This document shows positions 4,083 to 20,255 of a stretch of DNA of 36,732 nt, one piece after another. A program made the translations under genes and the position numbers. Under the pieces are notes generated by a model. The model searched no databases. It saw only the letters and a program-made list of their open reading frames with translations, and was not told the origin of the DNA. Source of the DNA: an uncultured Methylococcaceae bacterium. GTDB lineage: Bacteria > Pseudomonadota > Gammaproteobacteria > Methylococcales > Methylococcaceae. Location of the stretch: the NCBI GenBank assembly GCA_903934875.1, contig CAIZPP010000210.1, forward strand, positions 1 to 36,732. The letters run 5' to 3'. Numbering within the stretch: position 1 is the stretch's first letter; each line of letters starts with the position of its first letter.

Positions 4083-4691
4083 TTATTGCCCAATCATGCG
4101 GCGGTACTCATGAAGCAAATCGTCGCTAGTCGCAAAACCCTCAATACGCACCCAAGGCTTGCCTGGGGAAGCCCGCATAAAAATCAATGGGGCGTGGTTG
4201 TCCTTGTCGCCACGGTAGGCATTGAAGGCTTTTTGCACGTCAATGCTGGTTTGTGCCGTTCCGGTGTAAAACTGCCAGCCGCTTCCGGCCCTGAATTTCT
4301 TGGCATACTCAAGCAAACGCGCCGGGGTGTCCTGTTCTGGATCGATCGAAATCGACACCATGTGCCGCTTTTCGCCACCCTTGGCGAGCTTTTGCTGCAC
4401 TTGGGACATCAGGTGCGAGAGCATCGGACAGATGACCGCACAGGACGTAAAGATAAAGCTGACCATCACCGGATGCCCATCGTCTAATTCCCTAGACAAG
4501 GAGACACTGGCCCCATCTTGGCGCACCAGTGTCACTTCAGGGAGGCTGTAGACTGCCTCGGTGCGCGTGAAGCCGCCCCCCTCCTGCGCCGCGGAGCACA
4601 GGCCCGCCGCTAGGGCTGCGCAAATAAACACGGCGGCGAACCCGAGCAAGCAAGGGCATGGGTTCGTCTGTCCAGGTAGTGTATTTTTCAT
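4083..4691 (-). CDS. SCO1/SenC/PrrC family copper chaperone / thiol oxidoreductase
   Basis: SCO proteins are membrane-anchored, thioredoxin-fold proteins that deliver copper to CuA or other cuproenzyme sites, or keep their thiols reduced. The 202-residue product has a signal/anchor segment at about 16-36, the copper-binding motif FTSCAVICP (Cys84, Cys88) and the third ligand His166 in NHAPLI. The spacing is that of the family. The ATG at 4691 is preferred; a TTG at 4715 would add eight residues and overlap the end of the upstream gene. It follows the cytochrome c-fusion gene by 13 bp and so is probably in its operon. In this context it may load copper into the multicopper oxidase further upstream (inference). 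Confidence 0.93.
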   Translation of the reverse strand: MKNTLPGQTNPCPCLLGFAAVFICAALAAGLCSAAQEGGGFTRTEAVYSLPEVTLVRQDGASVSLSRELDDGHPVMVSFIFTSCAVICPMLSHLMSQVQQKLAKGGEKRHMVSISIDPEQDTPARLLEYAKKFRAGSGWQFYTGTAQTSIDVQKAFNAYRGDKDNHAPLIFMRASPGKPWVRIEGFATSDDLLHEYRRMIGQ

Positions 4692-4704
4692 CTGCGAGAC
4701 CCTG

Positions 4705-6468
4705 TTAAGGAACAATCCAACCCGATTCGGCGGTCAACTTGCCGTCTTCACCCAAGCGAACAATATAAGCACCTTTGGAGGCAAAGCGCTGCCCAGGCCC
4801 TAATCCCAAATGCGGATAAATTGTCGTGCTCGCGTGCTGGGTCGGCAGGCTATGCGGCTTCCCTAGCATTTCACGGTCCCGCGCCTGTTGCTCAGACTTC
4901 ATGCCTTCGGCTTTACTGAGCATACTCTCGGTTGTTTCCAACAAATAATCGCGATAGAGGTTGTCCAGCATCCCCGCCACTGTGTCAGTCAGGAAATTGA
5001 CCGCAAAGAAAGCCTCTGCTTGCAGCGGCTCGTCCACCACCGCCAGCCCCCGCATCGTCAGCCAAGCGCGGAAATTGGCCATATTGTCTTCGCGCTGGCC
5101 GGGCAAGTCATAGGGGTAGACCAGTTTCGCATGCTTCTTCCAAGCGACAGGAAACGGTCCACGTTCCTCGCCGGTCAGTTCGCCAGAAAAATAGACGGAG
5201 GCGGACGGTGGCGCCAGTTTTTCAAGCAGTGCAAGCTCTGCGGGTCGGAGCCACAGCATGAGCACTTCCGCGCCGGTCATGTTCTTGGTAGCCTGTTGCA
5301 AAGATTGTGGGTTGACATCCGGCAAGCAGCGGTCTTCAACGGTGATCCCCGATCCAGCCACAGCTTGTTTCAGGGCTTGCGCCGCGCCACGCCCCATCCA
5401 ATCATCGTGATAGACCTGTACCACGCGTTGCGGCTTCTGCGCACCTTGCCCGCTTAAATAACGCGCTAATACGCCAGCCTCCAGCGCAACCCCTCGCGAA
5501 AAGTAAACCGAATAGAAAGACTCCGTTGCTGGCGGCAGCGGCACAGAGGGAAACAGGCACGGCACTTGCGCTTGATTGCAGAACTCATGCACCGGTGCCC
5601 AAGTGGTCTCCGACAAACCGGAGATTAACGCGAAAACCGGCTCGCGTTGATAGTCGTCGTGCAATTGGGCCGCCCAAGTCTCGGGCGCACCTTGCAATTC
5701 CCACACATGAAGCTGCCAACGGCGTTCTGTGCCCAACACCATTTCCGCCGCCGAGACCATATGGCGGCGTCCGCCCCCCGACCGCGTCACGGTGTTGGCG
5801 TTTTTCTGTTTGAACATCAGCGTCAACATATCGACTAAGGTCTTGCGCCGCTCGGGTGAGATGCCGGGGGCAATGACCGTAGCGAAATGGAGGGTGTCGG
5901 CCGTGGCCCCCGGCGACCATTGCGATGACAACTGCCGCAGATAAGCGGCAAGTGCCTGCATTTCCGGCTTGTCCAATGCATAATGCGGCATCACCGGGTT
6001 CATGCTACGGCCTGAGTTGTTGATGCCTAGGCGGATGGCCTGGGCCAGCGTGTCGTCAGTGTAGGGGGCATGTGCCTGGTTCATGCGCTTTTCACCACGC
6101 AAATCCATTGCCGCCAACGCCATGTCGCCGGCTTGGGCATACAAAAATTTGCCGCTGATGGGCGGAACCTGAATGCCGCCCTCGACCGAACCCATGCCGC
6201 TTGGGCGGTGGCAATTGGCGCAAGCGGCTTGCGGCCCTTTCACTTCCACCTTGCCCGAGCGCATCCCATGCAATGGCGCGCCAGAGGGGAGGATGCCCTC
6301 TTGGTAAATACGCCGCCCACGCTCTATTTCATCGGTAGTTGGCGTAGCGGCGTGAACCCAATCGGGCAAGACCAAGCTTGCCAGTACCAACCAGCCGCAA
6401 AGTGCTAGCTTTGACTCTATAAGATTTGAACGGTACACACGGCGTACCCTAGGCGGCTTGGTTTTCAT
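4705..6468 (-). CDS. Exported cytochrome c fused to a periplasmic ligand-binding (ABC type 1) domain
   Basis: This 587-residue protein has a signal peptide (hydrophobic 20-38, cut near VHAA). Residues 45-185 are a mono-heme class I cytochrome c domain. The heme site is CANCH at 83-87, and a likely axial methionine is Met160 in NPVMPHY. Residues from about 190 to 540 resemble type 1 periplasmic binding proteins of branched-chain amino acid transporters (LHFATVIAPG, VFALISGLSETTWAP, VVQVYHDDWMGRG, AEAFFAVNFLTD). No permease or ATPase gene is nearby, so the domain is more likely a sensor or docking module than a transporter part. The gene sits between the FKBP gene and SCO1 in one direction. A role as electron acceptor for an extracytoplasmic oxidation is plausible but inferred. 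Confidence 0.88.
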   Translation of the reverse strand: MKTKPPRVRRVYRSNLIESKLALCGWLVLASLVLPDWVHAATPTTDEIERGRRIYQEGILPSGAPLHGMRSGKVEVKGPQAACANCHRPSGMGSVEGGIQVPPISGKFLYAQAGDMALAAMDLRGEKRMNQAHAPYTDDTLAQAIRLGINNSGRSMNPVMPHYALDKPEMQALAAYLRQLSSQWSPGATADTLHFATVIAPGISPERRKTLVDMLTLMFKQKNANTVTRSGGGRRHMVSAAEMVLGTERRWQLHVWELQGAPETWAAQLHDDYQREPVFALISGLSETTWAPVHEFCNQAQVPCLFPSVPLPPATESFYSVYFSRGVALEAGVLARYLSGQGAQKPQRVVQVYHDDWMGRGAAQALKQAVAGSGITVEDRCLPDVNPQSLQQATKNMTGAEVLMLWLRPAELALLEKLAPPSASVYFSGELTGEERGPFPVAWKKHAKLVYPYDLPGQREDNMANFRAWLTMRGLAVVDEPLQAEAFFAVNFLTDTVAGMLDNLYRDYLLETTESMLSKAEGMKSEQQARDREMLGKPHSLPTQHASTTIYPHLGLGPGQRFASKGAYIVRLGEDGKLTAESGWIVP

Positions 6469-6514
6469 TGTTGGTGTTGTCGATTAAGCTGATATGCAAT
6501 CAAGAATAACCCAT

Positions 6515-6566
6515 CCAAAGGCCAAGCTGGTGCTTGGCGCTCCCAGAAGGAACGCCAAGCCCCAGC
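6515..6566. repeat. Long inverted repeat between the FKBP and cytochrome-fusion genes
   Basis: Arms GCCAAGCTGGTGCTTGGCG and CGCCAAGCCCCAGCTTGGC pair with one mismatch around a 12-14 base loop. A partial relative with the same left half (GGCCAAGCTGGGGCTC, GCGCTCCCAGA) lies at about 14930-14960. As RNA it would form a strong stem in the 200-bp gap and could lower expression of the two genes that follow. Confidence 0.65.
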
Positions 6567-6672
6567 TTGGCAAGATGATTTGCGGAAGAATTGTTCGTGA
6601 TTTCCATGGACCTTTCATTTCGGTTTGGGTGGATTCATTAATTGAAATCACCTCAAGCCCACCCACAATGGC

Positions 6673-7386
6673 TCAAGGTTTGACCACTTGTGCTTCGGGG
6701 GCTTTGATGGCGAGCAGTTCGACCTCGAAAACCAGCATCTCGTTAGGCCCGATGTCGCGGCCCACACCCCGCGCCCCGTAGCCGAGATGGGCAGGAATCC
6801 ACAACTGCCACTGAGAACCCACAGCCATCAGCTTCAACGCCTCCTTCCAACCGGGGATGAGTTGTCCGACCGACAGCGTGGCGGGCTTGCCCGGTGCGCT
6901 GCTGTCGAACTCGGTTCCGTCCAACAACGTGCCCCTGTAGTTGGCATCTACCCGGTCGGCATCGGTCGGCTTAGGGCCGGTTCCCGCTTTGATGATCTTG
7001 TATTGCACACCGCTGGGCAAAGACACGACACCCGCTTTGACCTTGTTCGCAGCCAGGAAGGCTTCGCCTTTTTGCCGATTGATTTTAGCCGCCATTTGCT
7101 GGTTTTTGGCGGTCTTTTGCCGGACCTCGGCCATCAATGCATTCCTCCATTCGCGGAGTTCTGGTTCAGACAATAGCAGCCGCCCCCCCGATAGGCCGTC
7201 TCGGTAGCCTTGGATAAACTGGTCAAGGTTCACCTGAATGTCGGATTTCTTAAAATTCCGTGCCACATCCACGCCGATGCTGTAACTGAGTTTGTCTTTG
7301 TCTGTGATCAAGGCGTTGGCATCCTTGGCGTTGGCTTGGGTGCCTAGCCATGCCATAGCCGATAGTAAGAGGTAGAGTGCTTTCAT
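6673..7386 (-). CDS. FKBP-type peptidyl-prolyl cis-trans isomerase, exported
   Basis: The protein should speed proline isomerization during folding of exported proteins. The 237-residue product has a signal peptide (cut near QANA), an N-terminal dimerization region of FkpA/Mip type (about 28-115, DKLSYSIGVDVARNFKK), and an FKBP domain at about 125-232. Typical residues include YRGTLLDGTEFDSS, the LIPGWKEAL phrase, and the IPAHLGYGARG loop before the last strand. It ends 204 bp before the cytochrome-fusion gene and lies 15 bp after the nearest small secreted gene. The cluster suggests that it helps fold the oxidase or the small proteins (inference). Confidence 0.94.
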   Translation of the reverse strand: MKALYLLLSAMAWLGTQANAKDANALITDKDKLSYSIGVDVARNFKKSDIQVNLDQFIQGYRDGLSGGRLLLSEPELREWRNALMAEVRQKTAKNQQMAAKINRQKGEAFLAANKVKAGVVSLPSGVQYKIIKAGTGPKPTDADRVDANYRGTLLDGTEFDSSAPGKPATLSVGQLIPGWKEALKLMAVGSQWQLWIPAHLGYGARGVGRDIGPNEMLVFEVELLAIKAPEAQVVKP

Positions 7387-7401
7387 TGTAGGATTCCTAG
7401 G

Positions 7402-7752
7402 CTAATTTGGATTGACTGCAATCCAAGACACCGTCTCTGCATCCCCGTGAACATCACAGACAGATTTACCAACAACTGTGACTGACTTGCCTCTGGCTTG
7501 TGCCATTAGAACAATTGCCATTACCGCTTTTCCTTCAGGCTTTGTGGCATCAACCGCATAGCGGAAAGAGCTATTACATCCCAAAGGAACACTAGTATCC
7601 AATCTAAACAAAAAGGCACTGTTTATGTTTGCAAGTTCATAGTGCTGCCATAGATATGTTATATACCCTGTCGTTTGTGAGGCTTCGCTGTATTGGACTG
7701 GCAATAACAAAAACGAAAGTACTGCAACAACAGAGACAATGATACGTAACAT
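7402..7752 (-). CDS. Small exported two-cysteine protein, paralog A
   Basis: The 116-residue product has a signal peptide (about 1-24, cut near SEAS) and a mature beta-type part. It shares a pattern with three neighbouring genes: an aromatic/Gly start, an early Cys (VPLGCNSSFRY), a GKAVMAIVLMAQARGK helix, a strand with SVTVVGKSVC, and a closing strand. The two cysteines in the mature part may form a disulfide. The family was not recognised. It is the last of four tandem paralogs and is 15 bp upstream of the FKBP gene. A family B element separates it from paralog B. Confidence 0.8.
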   Translation of the reverse strand: MLRIIVSVVAVLSFLLLPVQYSEASQTTGYITYLWQHYELANINSAFLFRLDTSVPLGCNSSFRYAVDATKPEGKAVMAIVLMAQARGKSVTVVGKSVCDVHGDAETVSWIAVNPN

Positions 7753-7771
7753 GACTTTCCCCCTATATTAA

Positions 7772-7895
7772 TACAGCGTTTTCATCTTTAAAATATACCT
7801 AAATAATGGATATTCAGTTAACGCTTCAAGTAAACTGAATGACCTGCCCTTACATACCAGCTATCAAGTAACTATTTGATGTTGAAAACGCTGTA
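7772..7895 (+). mobile_element. Family B MITE-like element, complete, 124 bp
   Basis: The ends TACAGCGTTTTCATC and GATGTTGAAAACGCTGTA are imperfect inverted repeats. The interior carries the family hallmarks: TTTAAAATATACCT near the left end and ATCAAGTAAC near the right. The outer TA on each side may be a duplicated TA target, as in IS630/mariner-type elements (inference). It sits between paralogs A and B of the small secreted family. Confidence 0.85.
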
Positions 7896-7900
7896 ATGGA

Positions 7901-8239
7901 TTATTGATCGGTGATGTTATACCAATCGAAAGTTGGAAAATTTGGGTCTACGGCAAGGCAGGTATCCGATACAAAAAAATTGACCATCTTGCCAGCCATA
8001 TAAGCTGAGGTGAGCAACTCCAGGGTGTTTTTTCCGTTCATGGCGGAAATCGCAGGCCATCTTATGCTGGTGGTTGCACAGCCCGCAGGCCCTAGGTTAG
8101 GCCCACTAACTGACACATAACAAACCTCGAAGTCCTTATGACAGCCAATTAATGTAATTTTTCTTGGCCCGCTTAATGTCCCCGAGTATGCGGTTAATGG
8201 AAGAATAAGCAGTAAAGCGAGTATATAGATGCGGTTCAT
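7901..8239 (-). CDS. Small exported cysteine protein, paralog B
   Basis: The start is set at the ATG at 8239, where MNRIYILALLLILPLTAYS opens a signal peptide; the longer frame runs into a palindromic repeat. The 112-residue product has four cysteines in its mature part (GCHKDFEVC, AGCATTS, SDTC). It follows the same plan as its neighbours: a Cys before an aromatic/Trp strand, a GKNTLELLTSAYMAGK helix, then a strand and a final Cys. It is the most divergent of the four paralogs. Function is unknown. Confidence 0.78.
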   Translation of the reverse strand: MNRIYILALLLILPLTAYSGTLSGPRKITLIGCHKDFEVCYVSVSGPNLGPAGCATTSIRWPAISAMNGKNTLELLTSAYMAGKMVNFFVSDTCLAVDPNFPTFDWYNITDQ

Positions 8240-8272
8240 AGTGATTCCCCTAGAAAAAAATAGATGCAACAG

Positions 8273-8351
8273 GTAGGAGCGGGCCATGCCCGCGATAAAT
8301 AACCCAACTTGAGAATCGGTCCAATCCATCGCGGGCATGGCCCACTCCTAC
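8273..8351. repeat. REP-like inverted repeat between paralogs B and C
   Basis: The arms at 8273-8296 and 8328-8351 are 24 bases with one mismatch, built on GTAGGAGCGGGCCATGCCCG. Similar GTAGGA...CGGGCATGGCCC palindromes are common extragenic repeats in gammaproteobacteria. It lies in the leader of paralog B. Confidence 0.8.
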
Positions 8352-8396
8352 AAAACAAAAAAAGTCATCATGATATTAAAAGGTTGTAACGACGAG

Positions 8397-8729
8397 CTAC
8401 TTCCATAACCATAAGCCCGATACTATGGGCCGCCCCCAGTCGTCGCAACCAATAAGTGCCGGAGTAACCTGTTTAGCGGAAGAGTATGCCAACATCGCAG
8501 TGGCTACAATGTTTTTACCCTTTGGAGTGCTGGCATAAACTCGGGTATAACCACTATTATTTTGGCAATTGTCTGGATTGTTTTTTGTGTCAAAAACAAT
8601 AGTGAGTCTACTTCCGTCATCCTGTGCTTCGGGTATGATAGCCAAGATAGTAGATGGGGTTGTCCATCCACCCGCCTCGGCAAGCAATGGCAGTAACAGT
8701 AATGCACCAAAAAGCAGTTTTTTAATCAT
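8397..8729 (-). CDS. Small exported two-cysteine protein, paralog C
   Basis: The 110-residue product has a signal peptide cut near AEAG. The mature part has a Cys at DNCQNNSGYTRVY, a helix TPKGKNIVATAMLAYSSAK, and a second Cys (ALIGCDDWG). The Cys-aromatic-GK-helix-strand-Cys order matches paralogs A, B and D. It starts 14 bp after the stop of paralog D, so the two are surely co-transcribed. Function is unknown. Confidence 0.8.
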   Translation of the reverse strand: MIKKLLFGALLLLPLLAEAGGWTTPSTILAIIPEAQDDGSRLTIVFDTKNNPDNCQNNSGYTRVYASTPKGKNIVATAMLAYSSAKQVTPALIGCDDWGRPIVSGLWLWK

Positions 8730-8743
8730 GGTTGTTTCCTCTA

Positions 8744-9076
8744 TTAATAATCAATCTCAACGACATCTTCCCCGTTAGGCCAACGGGTGCAAGTGCCACC
8801 CCCTGTAACGGTAATCGCCTGACCGCTGGATCGTGCAGCCAGCAGTTGGGTCAATTGCTGTTTACCGGCATTAGAATTTTCGTCTTTAATCATCCAGTAA
8901 TTATAAAAAGCGCACGGGGGATGTCCTGCAGCCGTGCCATTCATGTTAAACCATACTAAGCCGTCACTTGCCCGTATCTGTATCTTCGTGACTTGCCCAG
9001 TTTGTGTACCCGCCGCCCATGCGGATGCTGTGAACAAGGCGCAGAGCAGCAAAGGAATGTAGATAAGTTTGCGCAT
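8744..9076 (-). CDS. Small exported two-cysteine protein, paralog D
   Basis: The 110-residue product has a signal peptide cut near AWAA. The mature part shows the shared pattern most clearly: GQVTKIQIRASDGLVWFNMNG, a Cys in HPPCAFYNYWMIKD, the helix NAGKQQLTQLLAARSSGQ, the strand AITVTGGGTC with the second Cys, and a final WPNGEDVVEIDY strand. It lies 17 bp after the stop of the multicopper oxidase gene, so the set probably forms an operon with it. Function is unknown; a small disulfide-stabilised beta domain is the best description. Confidence 0.82.
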   Translation of the reverse strand: MRKLIYIPLLLCALFTASAWAAGTQTGQVTKIQIRASDGLVWFNMNGTAAGHPPCAFYNYWMIKDENSNAGKQQLTQLLAARSSGQAITVTGGGTCTRWPNGEDVVEIDY

Positions 9077-9093
9077 GGATAATCTCCGATTGG

Positions 9094-12000
9094 CTAATTA
9101 TTTAAAATGTAATCCACAATCACCGGCAGCCAAGGCCCAGGGTTGAACTGCGCGGTGACACTGGTGGCATTGGATAGGGTCACCCCACAGGTGAGGGCGG
9201 TGCCGCTGCATCCGCCGCCTGACCAACCGGCAAACACATAACCTGGGTTGGGCGTGGCGGTCAGCGTGACTGTCTGGTTCACTGGATAAGTCGCGTTGCA
9301 CGTCGTGCCGCTGCAACTAATGCCCGCCACATCGCTCGCCACAGAGCCATAGCCATTGGCGATCACCGTCAAGACATAGCCCAGTGCCTGTATGGTCGGG
9401 GACGTGGCGTAGGCTGAGACGACGTTCGAGGTACTGACGGCGGCGACTTGGAAGGCGACAAACTGCCCGGTTGGGACACTAAGTTGTACACTGCTGGCCG
9501 TTGTCGATGGCAGATTGGCCCAAGTGCCATTGGTGCTGGTCGTGCCTATCCGGTATTGGACGGTGTAGCTCGCCGCACCCGGCACCGCATTCCAACTGAA
9601 GCTCGCTTGCAAACCCACCGAAAGGGTGACGGGAGTGGCGGGCAGCGTCGGGACGGTCATCGGCGTGGTGGACGAAACCGCACTGGATGTCGTGCCCCAA
9701 GCATTGACGGCGTTCACTGTGTAGCTGTAGGGTGTGCCTGGGCTTAACCCGCTATCCGTGGCCGTCGTCGCCGTGGTACCCAGCGTCGCCATCAGGCTGC
9801 TGCCACGATAGACTTGATAACTGGTCTCGCCCACCGAAGCCACCCAGTTCAGTGCCACTGACGTGCTCGTCGGCGTGGCCGTCAGGCTACCCGGTGCGGT
9901 CGGGACGGCGGGCGAGGTCAGTTTCACGCTGGACGGGGCGCTGCCTAGGCTATTAACCGCTTGCACGGTGTAGGTATACGCGGTATTTGCCGCAAGCGTA
10001 GGATCAGCATCGGTATAGCTTGTTGCGTTGGCCGCCAAGCTGGCGATCAACACGCCATTACGCAGCACTTGGTAGCTGGTTTCGTTACTGGCCGCATCGG
10101 TCCAAGCCAGTGTAATCTGCTTCGCTGTCAAGCTGGATGTGGCGACCAGCCCGGTTGGCGCGGCAGGCAAGGCATTGACCGTGACGACATTCGAGTAAGA
10201 AGACACCATCGTACCTGACAAATCGGGCAAGCTATTTAATAGAGGCACTGGAATGGGCACCGTCGTTGCCGCCGCGCCCACGGCGGAGACCCGGTAGTTG
10301 TAAGTCGTGTTGGCTGCCTTGGGGTTATTACTGTTAGTCGTGAGATTGTCGGTAAACGCACCGGGGATGATCCAACCCGGCATACCGGCGTTGGCCAATG
10401 CACTCGCGACCTTGATCCAAGGCTGGGTTGCCGTAGTGTTGTTGCTCACCAACTGCCTTTCGATGTCGAAGCGGAATTCTTTGTCCGAATTATCCACCCA
10501 ACTGATGTCAGCATTGGCACCGCCCAAACTGAGACTGGGCGCAATCGGTGCAGCCAGCGGCGACTCGACCCTGGCACCCGTTGCCAAACTGGCACCGCCC
10601 GGTTGGAACACCACAGGGCGCATGAAGTCGTTTTCTTCATGGCCTAAGATATGGCAGTGCCAGACATATTCATTATTAAAATTATCTAGCACGTTGACCA
10701 CCGTGGCTGGATTGCCGGTGTTGGGATCAATTTGGGTAAAACCTAGCGCACTACCCAAAGCTTGCGACGGGTCTCTGGGGCGCACGCTTTGCGGCAGGCC
10801 GAAACCATTGGTTTGCGGCTTTTTCGCCCTGGCCGCCACATAAATATCCTCCAGCGGATTCATACGGACGGTTTCTTTCCAGCCCAGTTCATTGGCGTAG
10901 GGTGGCTTCAAGGTGCCATCCCAACCCACACGATTGATCACCTGCACGTTGACCAAGTGGAAATGCACCACATGGCTGTCCACCCCATTGTGGGTAATCT
11001 TCCAGATTTGGGTTTCGCCATCGCCGACCGCCTCGGTGTCCGGGTCGATATAAGCCAGAGGAATCGTCGTCTGGTTGGTCGCACTGGTGTAGGGCAGCTC
11101 AACGCTGAAGGTGGCGTTCATACGCCCGTACAGCGGGTCGAACAACTCTTGAATGCCTTTGTTCAGGATGGGCAAGGTTTGCGTGGTTGAGGCAATGACC
11201 GTGGCGGTCGCCCCTAGGCCACCATTGACCGGGGTGAATTGGACGCTAGGCAGCGAGGTATAACCGGTTCCTGCCGTGTCAAGCACAATGCCGGTGATCA
11301 TATGCGAAGTGGCACTGATAACAGCGTGGGCGGTAGCGCCCGTCCCGCCGCCTCCCACGATTTTCACTGTCGGGGCCGCCAAATATCCCGAGCCTCCACC
11401 CAGCAATTGGACGGACTGCAAGGCCATCGGCCCGCTCGGCGTAAAACTCAGCGTGGGCTGGTTGATCGAGCCGGCGGAGATGGTCAATAAGTTGTCGCTG
11501 TCAGTAGTGCCGAAAGCCGGGTTGTAGGCGGCCTCTGGAACGATGGGCTTGGCTTGTTGCGCGGCATAGGCGGCCGGCAAGGCAGCTTGCAAGGCGGCGG
11601 TACCGGTAAAATTGGACGGCGTGGACACCGTGGCCGCCACTTTGATTTGCATGAGGGTCCTGGTGTTGGGACCGTAACCGGCCAAGCTGGTGGCGGCACC
11701 GCCCGAACCGGATTGGTCGGGGTCGGCGGTATAATAGTCTAAGCGCGGATCGCCCGCCGGCAGCGGGGCCGGGGCATCATTGTAAAGAATCAAAGTTTTG
11801 CCGGCGAATTTAGAGAAGTCGATCACCGCATCGGCACGTTCGGCTGGGCCTAAGAACAAACCATGCTCCAAGACGTTAAGCACGGTAACACTGCGCTTGT
11901 TGTATTCGTAATTGACCGGCGTGGAGGGTATTGTCACCGCATTAGGCAAAAAACCACCCTCCGTGCCAATTTGGACGATGTCCGGGCCAGTTTTTAACGG

Positions 12001-13863
12001 GTTGGGCACACCGCCTAGCCTTGCATCGGGGAAACCCCAGCCCGTGTTTTGCAAACCGCCCGTGGTCGGGAACGGTGTGGTGACATTTTGGGTCGAGTTG
12101 AAGGGCACCGTTTGCACTTCGGTGTTGACCGCCATATTTACCGATGCCTTGGCACCCGTGCCGCTGATATCGGTGATCATGAGGTTAGGCACGGCAGTAT
12201 AGCCTGTGCCTGGATTGGTCACGCTAATGGCCGTGATGACACCACCCACCACGGTGGCAACCGCCGCCGCCCCGTTGCCCGTCGTGTCCCCCGTGCCATT
12301 GACAAAAGATAGGGTTGGACTGGCGGAATAGCCCTGGCCGCCGCTGCTGACCGCCACTGTGGATACCTCAGAGTCGGCCAGATACAGCCCTAGATTCAGA
12401 TAACGGTCATTGGCAGCATTAAGGATGCGGAAACGATAGGCTTTAGGCTCGACCGTGGTGGTAGGGTAGGCGGTGCCGTTGACCACAGGAGTATCCATAA
12501 ACGCTTCCGGGGTGCTGCTTGCGTCTCCCACATAACCGGAGGGCAGTGAATATTTTGCGGGAAATATAGGCCAGAACCAAGGCCCCCAATCCCAGCGCCC
12601 CACCGGGTTAGTAAGATCAAATGAACCGGGGTCTTGGTTGGTTTCATACACATGCGGGAACCACAAATCGCCCGGTTGGCCCCATGCATTGACGGTATTG
12701 CTATTAATGTCCTTATTCCATTTGGCATCCTGCTGGGCAACGTCTTTAGGCACGAAGGTCTTGTCTTGTATCACTAAAGGAATTTGGGCCGCAGGCAGGG
12801 TGCCCGCGTTCACCAAGGCTTGTTCGGTCGGGTCGGTGATGACATAACCGGCGGCAATACCGGCATACACATTGAGGCGGGTTAGCCCGGAGGTGTGGTC
12901 GTGATAGAACATGAACCGGCCACTCAGGTTGTTCGGAAAATATAGCGTTTGTGCGCCATTGCCTGGGTCAGGCATATCGGGAACCGGGCGGGAACTGGCA
13001 CCTTTACCCATGCTCAAGCCGGTGTTGGGGTCGATGACTGAGTAAGCCGCATCACCCGCCGGGGCTATCCATTGGTGCGGGGTACCATCGCTGACCCACG
13101 GCGTATCGCCGCCATGCCAATGGATGTTAGCGCGGTTTTCGCTATAAAGCGTTTTGCCGTCAGGACCCAACCCCGCCCCCGGCAGCGTATAGTCAACCGG
13201 GATAAAAAGCTTGCCCGCTATACCGGTGGGCAGCAGGTTATAGTATTTGATGCGCACCGCCCTGCCTTTGGTGGCACTGATCAGCGGGCCTAGGTAATGG
13301 GGCTTGTCCACCGCATAGGCTTGCATCCCGTTGGGCAGCAGCACGGGGGTTTTGCCATCCGCTTGGACCAACGCGACCGTCCCCGGAACCTGTGCGGTGG
13401 ACAATTGCACATAACCGCGCAGATGGGTTGGCTTGGGCAAATCGCTGTGCATCCGCTCGGCATATTCGACCACGGCGATTTCGTAGTAGTCGGAACCCGG
13501 ATAGGATACGCTGTCCGGCTTCGCAACGGGGATGTATTGGCCTAGATTATTGGCACCCGCAGCCCCCAAACCCGGCAGGGTGTCGACGAATTTGCGCAAG
13601 GCGGTGCCGCTGTCGCACAGCCCGCTTAGCGTGGGTATGGCCGAGTATCCGGTGGTGTCGAAACAGTCGGCGGCAGGCCGTAGGCCGGACGGGCTGTTGG
13701 CGTAAAATGTTTGCACTTTAACGGGGTTGCCTGACTTATCGAGACTATCGCCATAACCTGCCCCGGCGTAACTCCGCTCGATACTCGCAGGCGTTGCCAA
13801 GGCCAGCAGGATAGCCACATACAATGGCTTGGGTATGAAACTCTGTTGTGTTGTCATCGGCAT
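9094..13863 (-). CDS. Giant exported multicopper oxidase with Fn3-like tail
   Basis: This 1589-residue protein has a signal peptide (cut near residue 33) and all multicopper oxidase signatures: NIHWHGG (246-252), FYHDHTSG (319-326), HVVHFHL (964-970) and HCHILGHEENDF (1069-1080). It should couple one-electron oxidation of a substrate at a type 1 copper to O2 reduction at the trinuclear site. Two Gly-rich repeats, each with PTxxxV/F and GTGYTxxP phrases, are inserted at about 501-577 and 815-893. Residues about 1100-1490 hold four Fn3-like domains, and 1497-1575 a cysteine-containing, InlB/Flg_new-like repeat (GYVFAGWSGGGCSG). The position matching the axial Met of CotA is Phe1080. The substrate is unknown; phenolics, Mn(II), Fe(II) or Cu(I) are options. 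A start at the third codon (13857) is equally possible. Confidence 0.95.
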   Translation of the reverse strand: MPMTTQQSFIPKPLYVAILLALATPASIERSYAGAGYGDSLDKSGNPVKVQTFYANSPSGLRPAADCFDTTGYSAIPTLSGLCDSGTALRKFVDTLPGLGAAGANNLGQYIPVAKPDSVSYPGSDYYEIAVVEYAERMHSDLPKPTHLRGYVQLSTAQVPGTVALVQADGKTPVLLPNGMQAYAVDKPHYLGPLISATKGRAVRIKYYNLLPTGIAGKLFIPVDYTLPGAGLGPDGKTLYSENRANIHWHGGDTPWVSDGTPHQWIAPAGDAAYSVIDPNTGLSMGKGASSRPVPDMPDPGNGAQTLYFPNNLSGRFMFYHDHTSGLTRLNVYAGIAAGYVITDPTEQALVNAGTLPAAQIPLVIQDKTFVPKDVAQQDAKWNKDINSNTVNAWGQPGDLWFPHVYETNQDPGSFDLTNPVGRWDWGPWFWPIFPAKYSLPSGYVGDASSTPEAFMDTPVVNGTAYPTTTVEPKAYRFRILNAANDRYLNLGLYLADSEVSTVAVSSGGQGYSASPTLSFVNGTGDTTGNGAAAVATVVGGVITAISVTNPGTGYTAVPNLMITDISGTGAKASVNMAVNTEVQTVPFNSTQNVTTPFPTTGGLQNTGWGFPDARLGGVPNPLKTGPDIVQIGTEGGFLPNAVTIPSTPVNYEYNKRSVTVLNVLEHGLFLGPAERADAVIDFSKFAGKTLILYNDAPAPLPAGDPRLDYYTADPDQSGSGGAATSLAGYGPNTRTLMQIKVAATVSTPSNFTGTAALQAALPAAYAAQQAKPIVPEAAYNPAFGTTDSDNLLTISAGSINQPTLSFTPSGPMALQSVQLLGGGSGYLAAPTVKIVGGGGTGATAHAVISATSHMITGIVLDTAGTGYTSLPSVQFTPVNGGLGATATVIASTTQTLPILNKGIQELFDPLYGRMNATFSVELPYTSATNQTTIPLAYIDPDTEAVGDGETQIWKITHNGVDSHVVHFHLVNVQVINRVGWDGTLKPPYANELGWKETVRMNPLEDIYVAARAKKPQTNGFGLPQSVRPRDPSQALGSALGFTQIDPNTGNPATVVNVLDNFNNEYVWHCHILGHEENDFMRPVVFQPGGASLATGARVESPLAAPIAPSLSLGGANADISWVDNSDKEFRFDIERQLVSNNTTATQPWIKVASALANAGMPGWIIPGAFTDNLTTNSNNPKAANTTYNYRVSAVGAAATTVPIPVPLLNSLPDLSGTMVSSYSNVVTVNALPAAPTGLVATSSLTAKQITLAWTDAASNETSYQVLRNGVLIASLAANATSYTDADPTLAANTAYTYTVQAVNSLGSAPSSVKLTSPAVPTAPGSLTATPTSTSVALNWVASVGETSYQVYRGSSLMATLGTTATTATDSGLSPGTPYSYTVNAVNAWGTTSSAVSSTTPMTVPTLPATPVTLSVGLQASFSWNAVPGAASYTVQYRIGTTSTNGTWANLPSTTASSVQLSVPTGQFVAFQVAAVSTSNVVSAYATSPTIQALGYVLTVIANGYGSVASDVAGISCSGTTCNATYPVNQTVTLTATPNPGYVFAGWSGGGCSGTALTCGVTLSNATSVTAQFNPGPWLPVIVDYILNN

Positions 13864-13899
13864 TCTCTAATTCTTTTTCATTGCGAAACAGTCTGGACA

Positions 13900-14190
13900 T
13901 TAATGGCAATGGTTAGGGCTGCCATCTGCGTTCACGGTCTTCCTATTGGCACAAACCGACTGCCATTTACCGGTGCGGGCGGCCTTGGCATCCTTGACGG
14001 CCAGGGCCGACCCTGCGCTCTTGGTATTCCCCGCTGTGTTGGCTGTCTGGCCGGTATAAACGTGTTTTGGGCCTTGCTGTGCAGTAGCCGTTGCCAGCCC
14101 CGGCGGTTGGGTCGCAAGCGCAAAACCAGATAGGGACAGCAGAATCAGCAGTAAGGGTAAAGTAATCAAACAATTCTTATATTTATTCAT
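13900..14190 (-). CDS. Small exported protein upstream of the oxidase
   Basis: The start is set at the ATG at 14190, where MNKYKNCLITLPLLLILLSL opens a signal peptide cut near FALA. The 96-residue product has a Gly/Ala/Thr-rich mature part with TGQTANTAGNTKSAGSAL and a C-terminal motif (WQSVCANRKTVNADGSPNHCH) with two Cys and two His. That tail could bind a metal, which would fit the copper context, but this is inference. It ends 37 bp before the oxidase start codon on the same strand and is probably the first gene of the operon. No family was recognised. Confidence 0.75.
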   Translation of the reverse strand: MNKYKNCLITLPLLLILLSLSGFALATQPPGLATATAQQGPKHVYTGQTANTAGNTKSAGSALAVKDAKAARTGKWQSVCANRKTVNADGSPNHCH

Positions 14191-14255
14191 GTTTCGATTC
14201 CTGAAGTTGGCATATATTTCTGAGAATGGTATGTGAAGCATGGGGGTATTTTATG

Positions 14256-14379
14256 TACAGCATTTTCATCTTTAAAATATACCTAATATAAGGAGATTGA
14301 GCTAACGTTTCAAGTTAACAGAATATCTTGCCCTTATATTTTAACTATCAAGTAACTCCTTGATGTTGAGAATGCTGTA
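14256..14379 (+). mobile_element. Family B MITE-like element, complete, 124 bp
   Basis: The ends TACAGCATTTTCATC and GATGTTGAGAATGCTGTA are inverted repeats, with internal TTTAAAATATACCT and ATCAAGTAAC blocks as in the copy at 7772-7895. It lies 66 bp upstream of the start codon of the small exported gene at the head of the oxidase cluster, so it may carry or displace that promoter. Confidence 0.87.
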
Positions 14380-15046
14380 GGTCAAACTGCAACTGATTTT
14401 TCGCCAGCAGTAGCAATTAATAATAATTATCATTAACCCATTAATCAACCCTAAAATTCATTTATCGTGAATTGAAAACACGGATTTATATTACTTAATT
14501 CAATAACTGAATTGCAAGTATTTTTTTGCTGGAATGGCTAGTTTTGATGGGTTTGGGTAATATTACCGAAAATGGAATATTTATTAGATTATGGCATAAA
14601 CAATGCTCAATTAACCTAAAAACGGCACTTGGAACGAAGAAAAATTCGTTCGTGCTGAGTGAAGTCGAAGCATGAGCGACTTTTCCTTCTTCACCTTTTG
14701 GGTGCGGTCCCAAAACCCGTTCACCTCCATCGACAGGCTCAGGACAGGCTTCGTCACGGCCCAGGGCGAACGGGTTTTGGAACCGCTAACTGCTGTTTTT
14801 AAGATTCAGTGATGCAGTCAGCACCGATCACTTATCGATAAGGACGGGACCATGCTGATATTCCCTCTGTATAAAAGAGGGATTATGCCATCCCGTCCGA
14901 AAGTTGGTGTGCTGTAAGGTGATATCCAATGGCCAAGCTGGGGCTCAGCGCTCCCAGAGGGGACACTAACATCAGAATTTGCTGCGAAAGTGATGTTTTA
15001 TGTTGCTTCGCTACCGTAGCGCACTATAGGCCGAGCAACTACTGGT
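14380..15046. other. Gene-free 667-bp stretch rich in inverted repeats
   Basis: No supported gene was found. It contains an AT-rich part (14400-14600), a CGTTCG-type extragenic palindrome with CCCAAAACCCGTTC / GAACGGGTTTTGG arms (about 14709-14782), a hairpin at 14842-14898, and a fragment of the GGCCAAGCTGG repeat near 14930-14960. The small frame at 14495-14713 lies inside the palindromes and is not convincing. Confidence 0.6.
14842..14898. repeat. Two-tier stem-loop
   Basis: Outer arms GGACGGGA and TCCCGTCC enclose inner arms CCCTCT and AGAGGG around a GTATAAA loop. No T-run follows, so it is not a standard terminator. It lies between the oxidase cluster and the EAL gene, which read in the same direction. 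Confidence 0.6.
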
Positions 15047-19286: not shown

Positions 19287-20255
19287 TCATCTACCCGGAA
19301 AGTGAAATCCAGAGCTTTGTATGGCCTGTTGCATTTGTATTTGATGGATTTGATTCTGTACGGCTTGCTGTCGCTGTTGCTGCTGCTGTTCTTGCTCCTC
19401 TTCGTGCTTTTTTTGCTCTTGTTTCTTTTGCGCAACCTCGTATTCGACTTTGCGAACATTGGACTCTACTTGGTAATTTGTCTCTTGCACTTTATGCGCA
19501 ATTCCGCTCGCATATTCGTTTTGCCGCTGCTGTTGCTGGTAATTATTTTGCATTTCTGCGATAGCGTTTTTCGTCGACTCGATTTGGATTTGGTGAGTTA
19601 GTATCTCCGTCCTGGCTTTTTGCTGCTCTGCGGCCTGGATATTTTGCTGTTGTTGCTGGTAATTATTTTGCATTTGCTGCTGATTGCGCAGATATTCCTG
19701 TTGCCTTTCCTCGTTAATTTGCTTGGCCGCATTCCCACCAGTTTGACGGGTGCTGGCTTGCGATTGGCCTGTCAGTATGATTGCATTCCCACCAGCTTGA
19801 CGGGTGCTGGCTTGCGATTGGCCTGTCAATATGATTGCATTCCCATTAGTTTGGCCGGTACTGGATTGCGTTTGGGCTTCATTCGGTTTGACCACCTGCC
19901 CTTTGGTTTGGCGGGTACTGGCCTGCGTTTGGCTTTCAACCGGTTTATGGTTTGTTTGTGTTTCAGCTTGATGTTTAGATTGTTGGGCACTGTGCGATAA
20001 AACCAGTTTATACTTCTCACTACTTGGGATTTTATGCTGCTTGCCATATTCGTTGTGTGCTGAGGCTTTTGCTGAAGAACCACCTCCTATATAGGGACCC
20101 GATAAATAACCAACCGATGAATATTGATAATCATCGTCATCTTCATAATATGCATTTTGACCCTGCATGGCCGCTTCATTAGGGAAAAAAAATGAGCAAC
20201 CAGCAATCAAAAATACAAAGCTTAATACTGTGCAAATTTCCAGCGACTTGTCCAT
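19287..20255 (-). CDS. Gln-rich coiled-coil lipoprotein with tandem repeats
   Basis: The 322-residue product has a lipobox (LIAGC, Cys20), so it is probably membrane-anchored. An acidic/Tyr-rich piece (YYEDDDDYQY) follows, then a Ser/Gln linker. Residues about 108-178 are four 18-19 residue repeats of the type QSQASTRQxGGNAIILTG. The C-terminal 140 residues are extremely Gln-rich coiled coil (QNNYQQQQQ, KKQEQKKHEEEQEQQQQQ). This gives an extended envelope or surface protein; no family was recognised. The repeats match a 54-bp DNA repeat. Repeat number and Gln-runs may vary between strains. Confidence 0.8.
   Translation of the reverse strand: MDKSLEICTVLSFVFLIAGCSFFFPNEAAMQGQNAYYEDDDDYQYSSVGYLSGPYIGGGSSAKASAHNEYGKQHKIPSSEKYKLVLSHSAQQSKHQAETQTNHKPVESQTQASTRQTKGQVVKPNEAQTQSSTGQTNGNAIILTGQSQASTRQAGGNAIILTGQSQASTRQTGGNAAKQINEERQQEYLRNQQQMQNNYQQQQQNIQAAEQQKARTEILTHQIQIESTKNAIAEMQNNYQQQQRQNEYASGIAHKVQETNYQVESNVRKVEYEVAQKKQEQKKHEEEQEQQQQQRQQAVQNQIHQIQMQQAIQSSGFHFPGR
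19729..19890. repeat. 54-bp minisatellite inside the Gln-rich lipoprotein gene
   Basis: The units at 19729-19782 and 19783-19836 differ by only about two bases. A third, more diverged unit lies at 19837-19890 and a weaker fourth up to about 19944. Each unit starts GCATTCCCA and keeps frame (18 codons). The near identity of the first two units points to a recent duplication. Confidence 0.88.

What the first reader, a model, noticed from the sequence alone, without database searches (positions are those of the whole stretch)
4083..14190. A secreted copper-oxidase cluster that looks like a new extracytoplasmic redox system
Nine co-directional genes, all with export signals, encode a giant multicopper oxidase, its small Cys/His-tailed upstream partner, four small disulfide-type proteins, a prolyl isomerase, a cytochrome c-receptor fusion and SCO1. 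Electron flow from an outside substrate via the oxidase or cytochrome to oxygen, with copper loading by SCO1 and folding help by FKBP, would explain the set. In a methanotroph, copper handling or metal (Mn, Fe) oxidation are natural guesses.
Basis: partly seen in the sequence, partly recalled or inferred. Interest (0 to 1): 0.8.

Follow-up and report, generated by a model that had tools for sequence, protein, structure and literature searches.

The report
Methanotroph version of Leptothrix mof operon
This gene cluster is not a new redox system: it is a methane-eating bacterium's copy of the mof operon, long suspected of making manganese oxides outside the cell, with four unusual small secreted proteins inserted in the middle.

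Summary
The claim of a new system is not right. The core is the mof operon first described in Leptothrix discophora: mofA (giant multicopper oxidase), mofB (FKBP), mofC (cytochrome c fused to a periplasmic-binding domain) and SCO1. He et al. 2017 (PMC5566968) already described this set in iron oxidisers. The window's proteins match two organisms they list, Ferriphaselus R-1 and the KS Gallionellaceae (51-60% identity). Methanotrophs carry it patchily: MofA in 8 of 121 genomes of the order, with relics in two same-genus genomes.

Three things go beyond earlier description. First, the window MofA and its beta/gammaproteobacterial clade have Phe at the type-1 copper axial position, where Geobacter-type relatives have Met; this predicts a higher-potential oxidase. 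Second, the four "disulfide-type" proteins are one paralogous family with a predicted OB-fold resembling AB5 B-subunits; it was found in no other mof locus and occurs elsewhere in the genus without mof. Third, the His/Cys-tailed upstream protein has no detectable relative.

The likely job is Mn(II) oxidation outside the cell, unproven even in Leptothrix. New member of a known kind.

The parts
13900..14190 (-). Small exported protein (96 aa) with tail CANRKTVNADGSPNHCH; first gene of the run
   Evidence: ORF, signal-like N-terminus; only chance-level matches in 38 genomes of the family; no equivalent upstream of mofA in other loci
9094..13863 (-). MofA-type secreted multicopper oxidase, 1589 aa; cupredoxin core about residues 60-1090, then fn3 and Flg_new_2 (InlB-type) repeats
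   Evidence: Pfam and NCBIfam; CotA alignment; tree
10624..10626 (-). Codon of Phe1080, the type-1 copper axial position of MofA (HCHILGHEENDFM)
   Evidence: Aligned without gap to the axial Met of CotA (HCHILEHEDYDMM); Phe/Met survey
8744..9076 (-). S1, small exported protein, two conserved Cys
8397..8729 (-). S2, paralogue of S4 (phmmer 3e-4 to 6e-4)
7901..8239 (-). S3, member of the same small family; start corrected from 8338
7402..7752 (-). S4, same family; predicted OB-fold (mean pLDDT 84.7)
6673..7386 (-). MofB: FKBP-type prolyl isomerase, exported
   Evidence: PF01346 + PF00254
4705..6468 (-). MofC: mono-haem cytochrome c fused to a Peripla_BP_6 domain, exported
4083..4691 (-). SCO1/SenC copper chaperone with C92, C96 and H174
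14285..14313 (-). Candidate promoter TTGAAA-17-TATATT ahead of the first gene
   Evidence: 10 of 12 match, but the total count of sites in the region is near chance

Best explanation
This is a mof operon (mofA, mofB, mofC plus SCO1) in a Methylococcales methanotroph. Proposed mechanism: MofA is secreted and folded with help from MofB, loaded with copper by SCO1, and oxidises Mn(II) (possibly Fe(II)) one electron at a time at a type-1 copper whose axial ligand is Phe and so should sit at a higher potential than in Met-ligated relatives. Electrons pass to the trinuclear copper site and reduce O2 to water, leaving metal oxide outside the cell. MofC either shuttles electrons in the periplasm or senses a ligand through its binding-protein domain. 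S1-S4 are probably separately acquired secreted OB-fold proteins, with no shown role in oxidation. Shown here: gene identity, linkage, copper, haem and chaperone motifs, and the Phe position. Inferred: export, substrate, potential and electron path. The confidence given is for the identity of the operon together with extracellular metal oxidation in general; Mn(II) in particular is about 0.6.
For: MofA matches 304 candidate stretches in public genomes; MofB and MofC lie next to it in many, with SCO1 in about half of those. L025 (Ferriphaselus R-1) and L017 (Ca. Ferrigenium straubiae, isolate KS03) come from organisms whose clusters He et al. called ompB/mofA clusters; that paper describes MofC as cytochrome c plus periplasmic binding domain, and SCO1 in two clusters. 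Rubrivivax A210 has mofA, mofB, mofC, a copper metallochaperone and an exported unknown. All four copper motifs are intact, as are the haem motif and SCO1 ligands. The Phe clade of 31 is supported at 99 with the trait column masked. Fungal laccases with axial Phe reach about 760-790 mV, and Met-to-Phe in a Thermus laccase raised the potential by about 60 mV (PMC6487685).
Against: The papers read here call MofA a putative Mn oxidase whose function is still to be verified; in L. ochracea an iron role is argued. The axial residue is only one determinant of potential, and in the Thermus study the higher potential did not raise kcat. The Phe/MofC link rests essentially on one clade. No transcript or activity data are available.
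Confidence: 0.8

Rival explanations
1. Same operon, but the physiological substrate is Fe(II), with MofC feeding electrons inward (extracellular electron uptake).
For: mof clusters occur in iron oxidisers Ferriphaselus, KS Gallionellaceae and Leptothrix ochracea, where mofA is among the most highly expressed genes at iron-rich sites. MofC is a mono-haem cytochrome with an intact axial Met.
Against: The name-giving work concerns Mn; a high-potential type-1 copper is more than Fe(II) at neutral pH needs (inference).
Confidence: 0.25
2. A copper-handling or cuprous-oxidase system serving methane monooxygenase.
For: Host is a methanotroph and SCO1 is present.
Against: The operon is patchy among methanotrophs (8 of 121 genomes of the order) and common in non-methanotrophs. 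MofA shows only weak NCBIfam similarity to CueO (63.7 bits against a cut-off of 525).
Confidence: 0.07
3. S1-S4 are true subunits: a ring of small OB-fold proteins that anchors or feeds MofA, as the MnxE3F3 hexamer does for MnxG.
For: Four genes lie between mofA and mofB; about 12 kDa each with two conserved Cys; the predicted fold is the one AB5 B-subunits use to form rings. MnxE and MnxF are about 12 kDa, MnxE has a disulfide and the hexamer may be cyclic (PMC5622069).
Against: Not found in any other mof locus. Family members sit elsewhere in same-genus genomes without mof, near collagen-like exported proteins. MnxE/F were not compared by sequence.
Confidence: 0.12

Closest known systems
mofABC operon of Leptothrix discophora SS-1 and the Rubrivivax sp. 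A210 version (PMC8218464)
   Same: Giant MCO, FKBP (mofB), cytochrome c protein (mofC); A210 also has a copper metallochaperone and an exported unknown protein
   Different: Window adds four paralogous OB-fold proteins and a His/Cys-tailed protein; host is a methanotroph
ompB/mofA clusters of Ferriphaselus sp. R-1 and KS Gallionellaceae (PMC5566968)
   Same: MofA, MofB, and MofC with cytochrome c plus periplasmic-binding domain, SCO1 in some; Phe at the T1 axial position in both organisms' loci (L025, L017)
   Different: SCO1 position varies (upstream in L025); no S-family genes
Geobacter OmpB (GSU1394) cluster
   Same: Related giant MCO; a distant MofC homologue and SCO1 nearby (PMC5566968)
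   Different: No MofB; Geobacteraceae relatives L038, L040 and L046 have axial Met and fall outside the Phe clade
Bacillus Mnx complex (MnxE3F3G)
   Same: MCO with about 12 kDa accessory proteins; makes Mn oxide
   Different: Accessory-protein relatedness unknown; no MofB or MofC described
AB5 toxin B-subunits (PltB, SubB, LT-II, pertussis S-subunits)
   Same: Predicted OB-fold, about 100 aa, secreted
   Different: About 10% identity; no toxic A-subunit in the cluster; only a shared fold, no function implied

Membership tests
mof operon | Large secreted MCO with four copper motifs, homologous to MofA-type proteins | tested here: met
   51-60% to loci from organisms that PMC5566968 lists as having mof-type clusters
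mof operon | Direct similarity to L. discophora or L. cholodnii MofA itself | not tested
   that sequence was not found among the loci; nearest is a Sphaerotilus MAG (L069, 50%)
mof operon | mofB: FKBP prolyl isomerase downstream, same strand | tested here: met
mof operon | mofC: cytochrome c plus periplasmic-binding domain, same strand | tested here: met
mof operon | SCO1-type chaperone in the cluster (in some members) | tested here: met
mof operon | Mn(II)-oxidising activity | not testable with these tools
   needs bench work
OmpB (Geobacter) subgroup | Placement with the Geobacteraceae proteins and Met at the T1 axial position | tested here: not met
   Phe1080; separate clade at support 99
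Mnx complex | MnxE/MnxF-type accessory subunits | tested here: inconclusive
   size and two conserved Cys are similar; no sequence comparison made
AB5 toxins | B-subunit OB-fold | tested here: met
   predicted model only: VIA Z about 10, rmsd 2.3-3.0; Foldseek best E 0.002
AB5 toxins | Enzymatic A-subunit alongside | tested here: not met
   no such Pfam domain among the nine genes

The most novel reading that the evidence does not exclude
In this methanotroph genus the mof operon has recruited four OB-fold paralogues that assemble as a heteromeric ring around MofA, a convergent counterpart of the MnxE3F3 ring, giving a high-potential Mn oxidase complex coupled to a methanotroph's respiratory chain.
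Probability: 0.08. Interest if true: 0.75.

Novelty: new member of a known kind. Interest (0 to 1): 0.38.

Why it matters
It places a candidate manganese-oxidation operon in methane oxidisers, linking the methane and manganese cycles; the searches of the open-access library done here found no paper describing a mof operon in methanotrophs. The Phe/Met split at the type-1 copper is a concrete, mutable prediction for what separates MofA oxidases from the Geobacter OmpB group, which is needed for the reduction of insoluble iron oxides.

Tried and rejected
Homologues of the upstream 96-aa protein: only chance-level hits, the two C-terminal ones inspected were spurious. S-family in other mof loci: none at E < 0.01. 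S-family against PDB sequences: nothing; fold search used instead. MofC against PDB sequences: nothing. Empty-site test using trpS and the EAL-domain gene: they lie on different contigs in the same-genus genomes where both were found, so there is no clean empty site. Promoter and terminator scan: near chance. Leptothrix record by accession: not held. Phe/MofC association by Fisher test is strong (21 of 26 vs 1 of 29) but is not independent of phylogeny.

Full report
Observation. The intergenic gaps are short (13-204 bp), and all nine N-termini carry a hydrophobic export-type segment clearly above that of the cytoplasmic neighbours (a crude measure). The neighbours are trpS on one side and an EAL-type gene (named from reading the sequence, no family search hit) and a sulfate-binding protein on the other, so the cluster is bounded by unrelated genes. 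The genome carries two PmoA-family genes and is a methanotroph.

Identity. The literature describes exactly this core. In Leptothrix discophora mofA (giant MCO) is in an operon with mofB (FKBP) and mofC (cytochrome c). He et al. 2017 report MofC-like proteins with a cytochrome c and a periplasmic-binding domain, and a SCO1-type gene in two of the clusters (PMC5566968). Rubrivivax A210 has mofA, mofB, mofC, a copper metallochaperone and an exported unknown (PMC8218464). The scan of public genomes gave 304 relatives of the oxidase. Among those kept are loci of Ferriphaselus R-1 (L025) and the KS Gallionellaceae (L017), organisms that He et al. list; both have MofB (57%) and MofC (51-59%) downstream of a MofA that is 51-59% identical in its best segment.

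Anatomy. MofA keeps all four copper motifs. MofC has one haem motif with a conserved Met-Pro, and SCO1 keeps Cys, Cys and His. Differences in MofA length between species (about 1000 to 2170 aa) lie largely in inserted and C-terminal repeat regions (inference). In two methanotroph relatives one unrelated exported gene (178-181 aa, no Pfam match) sits between mofA and mofB (L008, L030), where the window has four small paralogues.

Type-1 copper. The window's HCHILGHEENDFM aligns without gaps to CotA HCHILEHEDYDMM; the Phe stands where CotA has its axial Met (that this Met is the ligand is from known CotA structures). Among the MofA loci, Phe and Met divide the family. With the trait column masked, 31 Phe proteins of beta- and gammaproteobacteria form one clade at support 99; Met proteins include Geobacteraceae, Chloroflexi, Acidobacteria, Verrucomicrobia and methanogen MAGs. 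MofC is present in 21 of 26 Phe loci and 1 of 29 Met loci with at least 4 kb downstream. These counts mostly reflect one clade: only two independent pairs on well-supported branches could be made. Outside it, a deltaproteobacterial Phe locus (L045) also has MofB, MofC and SCO1, whereas L077 has Phe without them and L119 has Met with MofC. Non-coordinating axial residues go with higher T1 potential (PMC6487685), so the Phe clade is predicted to be better suited to a hard-to-oxidise substrate such as Mn(II). This is inference.

Distribution. In the order, MofA was found in 8 of 121 genomes and MofC in 12. In the MofA tree the methanotroph sequences lie in several separate places, which suggests horizontal spread. 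Two same-genus genomes hold relics: G025 has the last 124 residues of MofC at 90% identity and a truncated SCO1, and G027 has the last 93 residues of MofA at 65% identity. The operon therefore seems to be gained and lost within the genus.

The four small proteins. They align as one family with two conserved Cys in the window set. A profile finds none in other mof loci but finds relatives elsewhere in same-genus genomes and sparsely in the order (11 of 121 genomes), several beside collagen-like exported proteins. The AlphaFold model (pLDDT 84.7) has the order strand-strand-strand-helix-strand-strand. The nearest solved folds are AB5 B-subunits, with Z about 10 but about 10% identity, and OB-folds in general, including the metal-binding SilF. 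A shared fold gives no function, and there is no A-subunit here. They may be surface lectin-like proteins or, less likely, MofA accessory subunits comparable to MnxE/F (PMC5622069).

Conclusion. An ordinary but clean new member of the mof family in a methanotroph, with two testable points (the Phe/Met split and the OB-fold insertion). The novelty claimed in the finding is not supported.

Noticed in passing
L164 (G025:C197) 8676-9479: Relic of the mof operon in a same-genus genome: C-terminal MofC (90% identity) and a truncated SCO1, next to a very large gene that looks like a non-ribosomal peptide synthetase (not tested).
   Followed up: partly
L123 (G027:C213) 512-784: C-terminal fragment of MofA (65% identity) in another same-genus genome with no full MofA found.
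   Followed up: partly
L118 and L119 (G021): One genome with two MofA types: a Phe type with the full mof set and a Met type with MofC only.
   Followed up: partly
L124, L125, L129: OB-fold S-family genes lie beside exported collagen-like proteins in same-genus genomes.
   Followed up: partly
L045: Deltaproteobacterial MofA outside the main clade also has axial Phe and has MofB, MofC and SCO1 upstream instead of downstream.
   Followed up: no
window 14250-15046: About 800 bp intergenic region ahead of the operon that looks rich in repeat-like sequence; possible regulatory or mobile repeat region.
   Followed up: no
window 19287-20255: Exported, glutamine-rich, repeat-containing lipoprotein-like ORF of 322 aa.
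   Followed up: no
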